Source: Sphingobacterium oryzagri (GTDB taxonomy: Bacteria; Bacteroidota; Bacteroidia; Sphingobacteriales; Sphingobacteriaceae). From it: DNA of 64,000 nt. A program made the position numbers and the translations under genes. This document shows, piece by piece, positions 61,656 through 63,708 of this stretch (the stretch's first letter is position 1; each line of letters begins with the position of its first letter). The stretch lies in assembly GCF_028736175.1 (NCBI RefSeq), contig NZ_CP117880.1:2356001-2420000 (forward strand), read 5' to 3'. The notes beneath the pieces were generated by a model, which saw only the letters and a list, made by a program, of their open reading frames with translations, was not told where the DNA came from and searched no databases.

Positions 61656-62498
61656 TTACTCAACGTTTACAGGGCTTTGCAGCAGTTCTTGTGCTTCCAT
61701 TAATACATGAGCCGCTTGTTCTTTGCTAAGGTCTACGTGTTGCAAAAATTTAGGTATTTGAATCAAGTCGCGAACCAAAATACAGGCATGTTTGAGCAAC
61801 ACGGCTTTTTCAGCGGCGCTCAATGTCGTCAGGCAAGTGATAGGATACAGGCCATTGTCGTCAACGCGCAATTTAATGCTTTTATCAGCTGGATAATCCC
61901 AGGATAGCAAGTTAAGCTGGTAATATTCGCCAAAGCTTTTCGCATCGCTTGTAAAATAAGCATTGGTGACCAGCCATCCCTTAGTGAACATGTGCTCACG
62001 ACCGAAAAAACGAAAAGGAAGCGCGGAGATATCCTTCAGGCGCGACATAAAATACATCGGTGTTGTCACTGAAATTTTCGCATCCACATCATTTCGAAAT
62101 TTACATTCAATCGCCAGCAGGTCGTTTGCCTTTGCAGCAACAACATCCACCTCGTGCGTTACCGCATGACCTCGAATGGTTTGGCTCGTCAGCGTTTCGT
62201 AACCATCATCGGCAAAAAGCTTGGCAATCCAACGCTCGAAGTAAAAGCCTTCCGGACCAAGTTCGCGCAACGCTTTTTTTAGCGAATACCGCGCTGCGTA
62301 AACCTCTCGCTGTTTTTTTAAGCAATCAAAGGCTAATTCATACAGTTCGCGGGTACTGATACCATCGTAAAGCTGTGCTTGTATCGCACGATAAACCCCG
62401 TCTACCTGTTCTTTTGTAGCGCCAGACCGGGACAACGAATGGCGTAGACTATCGGGATTAAACGGTACCAGCTCACCGGAATATTTTTTCACTCTCAT
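61656..62498 (-). CDS. ATP-cone domain fused to a PD-(D/E)XK (Mrr-like) nuclease domain
   Basis: In this 280-residue protein, residues 1-85 form an ATP-cone (KYSGELVPFNPDSLRHSLSR, then YSLKKALRELGPEGF), the nucleotide-sensing module of ribonucleotide reductases and NrdR. Residues about 86-200 look like a restriction endonuclease-type core: FERWIAKLF, then E116-V-D118 and E131-C-K133 as the PD-(D/E)XK metal site. The C-terminal about 80 residues are helical and of unknown role. No methylase or specificity subunit is near, so it is not a standard restriction system. The likely role is nucleotide-controlled cleavage of nucleic acid; this is inferred. Confidence 0.82.
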   Translation of the reverse strand: MRVKKYSGELVPFNPDSLRHSLSRSGATKEQVDGVYRAIQAQLYDGISTRELYELAFDCLKKQREVYAARYSLKKALRELGPEGFYFERWIAKLFADDGYETLTSQTIRGHAVTHEVDVVAAKANDLLAIECKFRNDVDAKISVTTPMYFMSRLKDISALPFRFFGREHMFTKGWLVTNAYFTSDAKSFGEYYQLNLLSWDYPADKSIKLRVDDNGLYPITCLTTLSAAEKAVLLKHACILVRDLIQIPKFLQHVDLSKEQAAHVLMEAQELLQSPVNVE

Positions 62499-62597
62499 CT
62501 CAAAAACTAGTATTGTTGATCTACAAAAAAAGTTAAATTTTGTCTATCGCACAAAACATTTTGTTTCTACAGACTGTTATCAATTAAAACAAACGCT

Positions 62598-62900
62598 ATG
62601 AGTATTTTAGATTTAGTTATCAATAAGGTAAAAGAAAGAATCGACGAAGCCTGTGAGCATGGCGAGATACCGCAATCCGAGCGTGTACTTTCGGTAGTGG
62701 CTGGGGGTTTTATTGTAGGATTTAGTGCAAAGCGTATATTAAAAAGCCCGTTAACGGCTATCAGCGGATTGACGTTGGGGAGTGCGCTTGTTGTACGCGG
62801 TGTAACGGGCAAATGTGCGGTAAAAGGTGCGGTAGAAGCCAAAAAGCACGTGAATGAAGAGGATGTAACGATCGTCGAACACCGTTATTTTGTAAAATAA
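62598..62900 (+). CDS. Small membrane protein, DUF2892/YgaP-like
   Basis: The 100-residue protein has two hydrophobic segments (about 31-50 and 52-68: SVVAGGFIVGFSAKRILKSP and TAISGLTLGSALVVRGVTGK), which match the two-helix module of YgaP-like proteins that ends in GVTGxC. The cysteine of GKCAVKG is in the usual place. The N-terminal helix is polar. Function is unknown. A terminator follows at 62929. Confidence 0.75.
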   Translation: MSILDLVINKVKERIDEACEHGEIPQSERVLSVVAGGFIVGFSAKRILKSPLTAISGLTLGSALVVRGVTGKCAVKGAVEAKKHVNEEDVTIVEHRYFVK

Positions 62901-63024: not shown

Positions 63025-63708
63025 ATGAAGAAACTGGTCGTGTTTACGGGAGCAGGCATTTCGGCCGAGAGCGGGCTGCAAACATTTCGCGGAGCAGATG
63101 GACTCTGGGAAGGCTATCGTGTGGAGGATGTAGCCACGCCGCAAGCTTGGAGAGCCGATCAAGCACGTGTACTCCATTTTTACAACATCAGGCGGCAACA
63201 ATGTATCGCCGCATCTCCCAATGCAGCACATCACGCCTTGAAAGCTTTGGAAGAATTTTACGATGTACATATCATCACCCAAAATATCGATGACTTGCAT
63301 GAGCGTGCCGGGAGCACTAGGGTTTTGCACCTGCATGGTGAAATCCGTAAAGCGCAATCGAGTTTAAATCCACGTTTCGTATATAACATGGCTGGCGATA
63401 CGTTAAACATCGGCGACACATGCGAACTCGGATCTCAATTACGCCCACACGTCGTTTGGTTCGGTGAAGCTGTTCCCAATCTGGAACACGCTGCATCTAT
63501 CACACAAGCGGCTGATATTTTTGTTGTAATCGGTTCTTCGCTGCAAGTCTACCCGGCAGCAAATTTGCTTTATGAAACGCACCGGGACTGCACAGTCTAT
63601 TTGATTGATCCGGAGGCTGATGTGATGCGCTTGGATTCGTCGATTATTAGGATTGCAAAACCCGCAACAACGGGAGTGGAGCTTTTACGTAAAATATTAG
63701 CCGAATAA
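63025..63708 (+). CDS. NAD-dependent protein deacylase, sirtuin family (SIRT5-like)
   Basis: The 227-residue sirtuin removes acyl groups from lysines with NAD. NAD-binding TGAGISAESGLQTFRGADGL is at the start, QNID at 86-89 and the catalytic His104 in HLHGEI. Y53 and R56 form the YxxR pair that favours succinyl and malonyl groups. The four zinc cysteines of E. coli CobB are missing: the segment 110-140 holds only C133. The module is therefore probably zinc-free, as in some Bacteroidota homologues. It is monocistronic. Confidence 0.93.
   Translation: MKKLVVFTGAGISAESGLQTFRGADGLWEGYRVEDVATPQAWRADQARVLHFYNIRRQQCIAASPNAAHHALKALEEFYDVHIITQNIDDLHERAGSTRVLHLHGEIRKAQSSLNPRFVYNMAGDTLNIGDTCELGSQLRPHVVWFGEAVPNLEHAASITQAADIFVVIGSSLQVYPAANLLYETHRDCTVYLIDPEADVMRLDSSIIRIAKPATTGVELLRKILAE

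What the first reader, a model, noticed from the sequence alone, without database searches (positions are those of the whole stretch)
61656..62498. ATP-cone fused to a PD-(D/E)XK nuclease
ATP-cones normally report dATP/ATP levels in ribonucleotide reductase and NrdR. Here the cone is joined to an Mrr-like nuclease core with E116xD118 and E131xK133. A nuclease gated by nucleotide state could respond to phage-altered dNTP pools or to replication stress. The protein stands alone without a methylase, so self-DNA must be protected by regulation, not by modification.
Basis: partly seen in the sequence, partly recalled or inferred. Interest (0 to 1): 0.6.

Follow-up and report, generated by a model that had tools for sequence, protein, structure and literature searches.

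The report
Nucleotide-sensor domain fused to a nuclease
A common Sphingobacterium gene joins the small ATP-sensing domain of ribonucleotide reductases to a DNA/RNA-cutting domain; its relatives usually sit beside an RNA-degrading enzyme, and some in nucleotide-recycling and stress gene clusters, so it looks more like an energy- or stress-controlled nuclease than a phage-defence enzyme, though nobody seems to have tested it.

Summary
[quoted passage not shown] AlphaFold2 gives mean pLDDT 94. The nuclease half matches the solved archaeal protein AF1548 (Z 22.3) and the cone matches RNR and NrdR cones (Z about 9). E88, E116, D118, E131 and K133 are invariant in 164 homologues.

The phage-defence reading is not supported: no phage or viral homologues, no defence island, and a genus-core gene of Sphingobacterium always paired with a divergent YgaP-like membrane gene.

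Relatives point elsewhere. In 395 Bacteroidota genomes, 42 of 43 close members of one beta-CASP RNase-like subfamily lie directly 3' of a cone-nuclease. Some loci add AMP-phosphorylase-like enzyme, PRPP synthetase, phosphoketolase, acetate kinase, Usp proteins and metal pumps. Like-named genes are microoxia-induced in Bradyrhizobium (published).

Best model: an adenine-nucleotide-gated nuclease for stress-time nucleic-acid turnover. Gating, its direction and the substrate are inferred. The window copy lacks the partner gene and the outer-site lysine, so dATP sensing is doubtful there. The fusion is already in databases; the operonic context appears unreported.

The parts
61656..62498 (-). CDS, 280 aa: ATP-cone + Mrr-type PD-(D/E)XK nuclease + AF1548-like C-terminal domain
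62265..62498 (-). ATP-cone domain, residues 1-78; K5 (= E. coli NrdR K53) kept, V11 and S17 at the NrdR E59 and K65 positions
   Evidence: Pfam; fold match to RNR and NrdR cones; residue counts; NrdR residue roles from PMC9110341 and PMC12176259
61908..62249 (-). Mrr_cat PD-(D/E)XK nuclease core, residues 84-197
   Evidence: Pfam; 1Y88 AF1548 Z 22.3; phmmer E 8.5e-24
62235..62237 (-). codon of E88, first helix of the nuclease core, invariant 164/164
62145..62153 (-). codons of E116-x-D118, invariant 164/164 (D118 aligns with predicted catalytic D38 of AF1548)
62100..62108 (-). codons of E131-x-K133, invariant 164/164 (align with predicted catalytic E51 and K53 of AF1548)
61680..61847 (-). AF1548-like C-terminal helical domain, residues 218-273
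   Evidence: PF22357; covered by the 1Y88 fold match
62499..62597 (.). 99-bp intergenic region between the two divergent genes (shared upstream region)
62598..62900 (+). divergent small YgaP-like (PF11127) membrane protein, 100 aa; present beside the nuclease in 30 of 30 same-genus loci (29 immediately adjacent)
63025..63708 (+). Sir2-family NAD-dependent deacylase, next gene in some of the genus loci

Best explanation
It is a metal-dependent PD-(D/E)XK nuclease of the AF1548 type. An N-terminal ATP-cone reports the adenine-nucleotide state of the cell and switches the nuclease. The most likely role is controlled degradation of nucleic acid (RNA or DNA) when energy or redox state falls, so that nucleotides and pentose can be recovered; ATP in the cone would then hold the enzyme off in well-fed cells. 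Many relatives add a co-transcribed beta-CASP metallo-RNase-like enzyme. A minority add AMP-phosphorylase-like enzyme, PRPP synthetase, phosphoketolase and acetate kinase, which together would turn nucleotides into pentose phosphate, acetyl phosphate and ATP. The Sphingobacterium copy is a stand-alone, genus-core version of the same enzyme. Shown: the domain architecture, conserved catalytic residues, the predicted fold, and the conserved neighbour genes. Inferred: co-transcription, nucleotide binding, gating and its direction, the substrate, and the metabolic purpose.
For: Two-domain architecture with a confident model (mean pLDDT 94, pTM 0.89). The nuclease half matches 1Y88 at Z 22.3 over 183 residues; the cone matches E. 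coli RNR at Z 9.0 (1.6 A over 70 residues) and NrdR 9gex at Z 8.7. Active-site residues are 164/164. Of 43 close MBL/beta-CASP genes in 395 Bacteroidota genomes, 42 lie directly 3' of a cone-nuclease on the same strand, with gaps of -4 to 52 bp in 41 of them; an MBL of this operon carries Beta-Casp and the RMMBL RNA-specificity domain. The PRK04350 AMP-phosphorylase-like family is over cut-off in only 2 of the 395 genomes, and both copies are in the cone-nuclease operon. Criblamydia and Pontibacter plasmid loci carry the longer pathway. Catabolic genes occur within 8 kb in 14 of 81 loci outside the window's clade. In B. diazoefficiens the MBL, PRPP synthetase and thymidine phosphorylase genes bll3115-3117 and a phosphoketolase are induced in microoxia (PMC6515984). 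An ATP-cone is also fused to a glucoamylase-like enzyme right beside the cone-nuclease in one genus.
Against: The window's own genome has no MBL partner at E <= 1e-50 and no PRK04350 enzyme (best hit 5.7e-9). Its clade is solitary in 49 of 49 scorable cases, so the operon argument is by homology at about 31-45% identity. The full pathway accompanies only a minority of relatives. Comparison of individual catabolic genes between the two clades was not significant (Fisher p 0.19-1). The cone's outer-site lysine is Ser17 in the window copy and the E59 position is Val11. No nucleotide binding, nuclease activity or expression has been measured. The Bradyrhizobium genes are matched to this module by name, not by sequence here.
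Confidence: 0.4

Rival explanations
1. Housekeeping DNA-processing or repair nuclease whose activity is tuned to replication or nucleotide state (like NucS/EndoMS or Hjc-type enzymes), with the cone tying it to dATP/ATP.
For: Genus-core, fixed context and strong conservation in Sphingobacterium. Hjc-family Pfam hit over cut-off. Fold neighbours include NucS/EndoMS and AspBHI at Z about 10-11.
Against: No repair or replication gene is a conserved neighbour. The repeated neighbours are RNase-like and stress genes. PD-(D/E)XK fold similarity does not give the substrate.
Confidence: 0.2
2. Phage-defence nuclease triggered by phage-altered dNTP pools.
For: The design (sensor domain plus PD-(D/E)XK) resembles Can2 and Card1, which are among the fold matches. 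Distribution is patchy in the family (10 of 25 genera) and some copies are on plasmids.
Against: No PADLOC family matches well (best 3.3e-5 to the nuclease part of a CARF protein). Neighbour scans show only single hits to generic families. No homologue in phage records and none confirmed in viral contigs. Genus-core in Sphingobacterium. The outer-site lysine used for the dATP site in NrdR is lost in the window copy.
Confidence: 0.12
3. Part of a metal (copper) and low-oxygen stress island: the nuclease and its partners clear damaged nucleic acid and feed PRPP and pentose synthesis while copper-sensitive steps are blocked.
For: P-type ATPase genes lie within 8 kb in 21 of 81 loci outside the window's clade. 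Sphingobacterium second copies sit beside copper-type ATPases, some with archaeal-type GAPDH, class I FBA and PRPP synthetase. Copper inhibits Prs and lowers PRPP in S. aureus (PMC10249872).
Against: No P-type ATPase is near the window's clade (0 of 23). The link may be only that such islands collect many stress genes.
Confidence: 0.13
4. The cone no longer senses nucleotides in this clade and serves only as an oligomerisation module for a constitutive nuclease.
For: Val11 and Ser17 replace two nucleotide contacts of NrdR. Position 17 is Ser or Ala in 32 of 50 clade members, whereas it is Lys in 111 of 114 others.
Against: The cone is nearly as conserved as the nuclease within the clade (mean column identity 0.715 versus 0.747). 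K5, G8, F13, T49 and Y53 stay conserved.
Confidence: 0.15

Closest known systems
AF1548 of Archaeoglobus fulgidus (PDB 1Y88), predicted restriction-type endonuclease
   Same: Nuclease core and C-terminal domain align over residues 81-273, E 8.5e-24, Z 22.3; the three catalytic residues predicted in PMC1821046 (D38, E51, K53) match D118, E131, K133
   Different: The crystallised AF1548 chain starts at the nuclease and has no ATP-cone; no functional test of it was found
NrdR repressor and RNR ATP-cones
   Same: Cone fold (Z about 9, 1.6-2.1 A) and inner-site lysine
   Different: Output domain is a nuclease, not a Zn-ribbon or a reductase; R/E/K contact residues are replaced (Y6, V11, S17)
Can2, Card1 and related CARF nucleases
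   Same: Small-nucleotide sensor domain in front of a PD-(D/E)XK nuclease; fold matches at Z 9-10 for the nuclease
   Different: Sensor is an ATP-cone, not CARF; no CRISPR context was seen at the loci examined
Mrr-type and modification-dependent restriction enzymes (AspBHI, MspJI)
   Same: Mrr_cat Pfam match and fold of the core (AspBHI Z 11.4)
   Different: No DNA-reading domain recognised; genus-core; no R-M partner
Archaeal pentose bisphosphate (NMP) pathway: AMP phosphorylase and downstream enzymes
   Same: Some relatives sit with a PRK04350/TIGR02645 enzyme close to AMP phosphorylase (506 bits, cut-off 535) and with PRPP synthetase
   Different: Formally below the AMP phosphorylase cut-off; R15P isomerase and Rubisco are not annotated in the plasmid operons; nuclease not part of the described pathway (PMC9700705)

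Membership tests
ATP-cone domain (PF03477) | Profile match over the curated cut-off and cone fold | tested here: met
   32.9 bits vs 25.8; VIA-align Z 9.0 to E. coli RNR, 8.7 to NrdR
ATP-cone domain (PF03477) | Nucleotide-contact residues (NrdR V48, K50, R51, E56, K62 in S. coelicolor) | tested here: inconclusive
   V3 and K5 kept; Y6, V11, S17 differ in the window copy; relatives keep K at 17 in 111/114
ATP-cone domain (PF03477) | Binds ATP/dATP | not testable with these tools
   needs a binding assay
AF1548-like PD-(D/E)XK nuclease | Fold and catalytic D...E-x-K | tested here: met
   Z 22.3 to 1Y88; D118, E131, K133 plus E88 and E116 164/164
AF1548-like PD-(D/E)XK nuclease | Nuclease activity | not testable with these tools
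   not measured for any member in the papers found
Mrr / Type IV restriction system | Mrr catalytic domain | tested here: met
   PF04471 35.4 bits vs 21
Mrr / Type IV restriction system | DNA-modification reading domain | tested here: not met
   no such domain in the Pfam scan; the other domains are the ATP-cone and the AF1548-like C-terminus
Known anti-phage defence systems (PADLOC) | Match to a defence family model and a defence-gene neighbourhood | tested here: not met
   only weak nuclease-part matches; neighbours hit only single generic families
Can2/Card1-type CARF nucleases | CARF sensor domain and type III CRISPR association | tested here: not met
   sensor is an ATP-cone; no CRISPR neighbours seen in the neighbour scans
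RNR / NrdR | Reductase or Zn-ribbon output domain | tested here: not met
   output is Mrr_cat

The most novel reading that the evidence does not exclude
ATP-cones work as energy gates on catabolic enzymes. Here one gates the first, nucleic-acid-cutting step of a bacterial pathway (cone-nuclease, beta-CASP RNase, AMP-phosphorylase-like enzyme, PRPP synthetase, phosphoketolase, acetate kinase) that turns RNA or DNA into ATP and pentose during hypoxia or metal stress. A neighbouring cone-glucoamylase fusion would gate glucan use in the same way.
Probability: 0.22. Interest if true: 0.8.

Novelty: new variant of a known kind. Interest (0 to 1): 0.5.

Why it matters
ATP-cones have been studied almost only in ribonucleotide reductases and NrdR. 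A widespread nuclease with an intact active site under such a sensor would be a new way to tie nucleic-acid turnover to cell energy state. The tight link with one beta-CASP subfamily makes the idea directly testable in culturable Flavobacterium and Sphingobacterium. It would also warn against reading every sensor-nuclease fusion as phage defence.

Tried and rejected
Phage or mobile origin: no hit in phage records, none confirmed in viral contigs, two plasmids only. Defence island: PADLOC on the protein, on 116 neighbour proteins and on 52 window proteins gave only single hits to generic families. Literature: no open-access paper combined ATP-cone with Mrr and nuclease; AF1548 was found only as a structural-genomics orphan. 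Comparing single catabolic neighbours between clades gave non-significant Fisher tests, so I do not claim pathway enrichment from that test. The ATP-cone paper of Aravind, Wolf and Koonin (2000) may list nuclease fusions; I could not read it here.

Full report
What is there. The ORF at 61656-62498 (minus strand) is intact, 280 aa, with an ATG that close homologues share as the N-terminus. Pfam finds an ATP-cone at residues 1-78, the Mrr catalytic domain at 84-197 and, below its cut-off, an AF1548-like C-terminal domain at 218-273. The nuclease and C-terminal part match the solved Archaeoglobus protein AF1548, E 8.5e-24. An AlphaFold2 model from 48 aligned sequences has mean pLDDT 94 and pTM 0.89. 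Its best fold match is AF1548 (Z 22.3, 183 residues). Its cone matches E. coli RNR (Z 9.0, 1.6 A over 70 residues) and E. coli NrdR (Z 8.7, 1.8 A over 76).

Is the active site kept? In 164 non-identical homologues E88, E116, D118, E131 and K133 are invariant. D118, E131 and K133 correspond to the catalytic residues D38, E51 and K53 that were predicted for AF1548 in PMC1821046. This speaks for a working metal-dependent nuclease, though none has been assayed in the papers found.

Is the cone kept? In NrdR of S. coelicolor, V48, K50, R51 and E56 are inner-site residues and K62 contacts the outer nucleotide (PMC9110341; E. coli numbering V51, K53, E59, K65 in PMC12176259). The fold alignment starts residue 1 at E. 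coli NrdR 49, which puts V3, K5, Y6, V11 and S17 at these sites; this mapping is my inference from the alignments. K5 is present in 156 of 164 homologues. Position 17 is Lys in 111 of 114 sequences outside the window's clade, but Ser or Ala in 32 of 50 sequences inside it, the window included. The window protein may therefore bind one adenine nucleotide rather than an ATP/dATP pair. It is the only cone found in its genome; the single RNR large subunit found there has none.

Distribution. The host is a Sphingobacterium by the company of its relatives. The gene is in 33 of 35 same-genus genomes, in 47 of 151 genomes and 10 of 25 genera of the family, and in 75 of 395 genomes and 35 of 170 genera of the phylum. 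A chlamydial plasmid carries it too. No phage record does and no viral contig was confirmed. A tree of the 164 proteins puts the window in a monophyletic clade of 50 (support 1.0), defined by at least 50% identity to it, which includes Sphingobacterium, Parapedobacter and Weeksellaceae members.

Context, and the main new result. In the window's clade the gene stands alone: 0 of 49 scorable members have the partner described below. In Sphingobacterium it is paired head-to-head with a small YgaP-like membrane protein (30 of 30 loci, 29 immediately adjacent). Outside this clade, 69 of 111 scorable members are followed on the same strand by an MBL/beta-CASP protein, and the one examined has the RNA-specificity domain. 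In the phylum sample, MBL genes with at least 52% identity to the query number 43, and 42 of these lie directly 3' of a cone-nuclease; 41 gaps are between -4 and 52 bp. The more distant MBL paralogues checked are not adjacent. This subfamily is thus nearly specific to the cone-nuclease, which is strong evidence for a functional link.

Wider neighbourhood. Plasmids of Criblamydia and Pontibacter add an AMP-phosphorylase-like enzyme and PRPP synthetase, and the former also phosphoketolase, glucan phosphorylase and acetate kinase. The AMP-phosphorylase-like family is over its cut-off in only two of the 395 genomes, and both copies lie in the cone-nuclease operon. Such catabolic genes are within 8 kb in 14 of 81 loci outside the window's clade, and P-type metal or cation ATPases in 21 of 81; neither occurs in the 23 loci of the window's clade, though no single catabolic gene differs significantly. 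MBL, PRPP synthetase and phosphorylase genes also occur in proteobacterial plasmid islands without the cone-nuclease. In Bradyrhizobium diazoefficiens genes with these names (bll3115-3117) and a phosphoketolase rise at both RNA and protein level at 0.5% oxygen (PMC6515984). In one genus an ATP-cone is fused to a glucoamylase-like enzyme encoded next to the cone-nuclease.

Interpretation. A sensor-gated nuclease is the best reading of the architecture, by analogy with cones in RNR and with Can2/Card1. The neighbours favour nucleic-acid turnover and recovery of nucleotides under energy, oxygen or metal stress over phage defence. I put this at 0.4 because the window copy lacks the partners, the gating is untested and the substrate is unknown. 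A repair role (0.2), a non-sensing cone (0.15), a copper-island role (0.13) and defence (0.12) remain open.

Novelty. The fusion is not new to databases: NCBI names the plasmid copies 'ATP cone domain-containing protein', and the AF1548 structure dates from 2004. What seems unreported, within the open-access papers searched, is the strict operonic link to a beta-CASP enzyme, the stress and nucleotide-salvage setting, and the cone-glucoamylase fusion. I file it as a new variant of a known kind.

Noticed in passing
L158:9851-11386 (also L159:9817-11352): An ATP-cone (residues 6-70) fused to a putative glucoamylase (PF10091), encoded just downstream of the cone-nuclease; conserved at 82-91% identity in several genomes of one genus. 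Probably a local duplication of the neighbour's cone.
   Followed up: partly
L198, L199, L200: AMP-phosphorylase-like + PRPP synthetase modules (L198 also with MBL, a likely phosphoketolase and archaeal-type GAPDH) on plasmids with metal pumps; in Legionella anisa next to an alternate F1F0 ATPase operon.
   Followed up: partly
hits H32 and H33: Martelella lutilitoris and 'Dysgonomonadaceae bacterium zrk40' plasmid records, both from a cold seep, have the same length, 166,348 bases; likely the same plasmid and a contamination.
   Followed up: no
L160:8148-9365: A 405-aa protein with two ATP-cones followed by an AAA-type kinase domain, as in 2-phosphoglycerate-kinase-like proteins.
   Followed up: no
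L076: A contig labelled Bifidobacterium breve MAG carries a typical Flavobacterium gene order around the cone-nuclease, so it is probably misbinned.
   Followed up: no
window 62499-62900: The divergent YgaP-like membrane gene beside the nuclease is conserved in all 30 Sphingobacterium loci; its role is unexplained.
   Followed up: partly
L032, L037, L038, L042, L043: Several Sphingobacterium genomes have a second, 31-42% identical cone-nuclease in islands with copper-type ATPases, some also with class I aldolase and archaeal-type GAPDH.
   Followed up: partly
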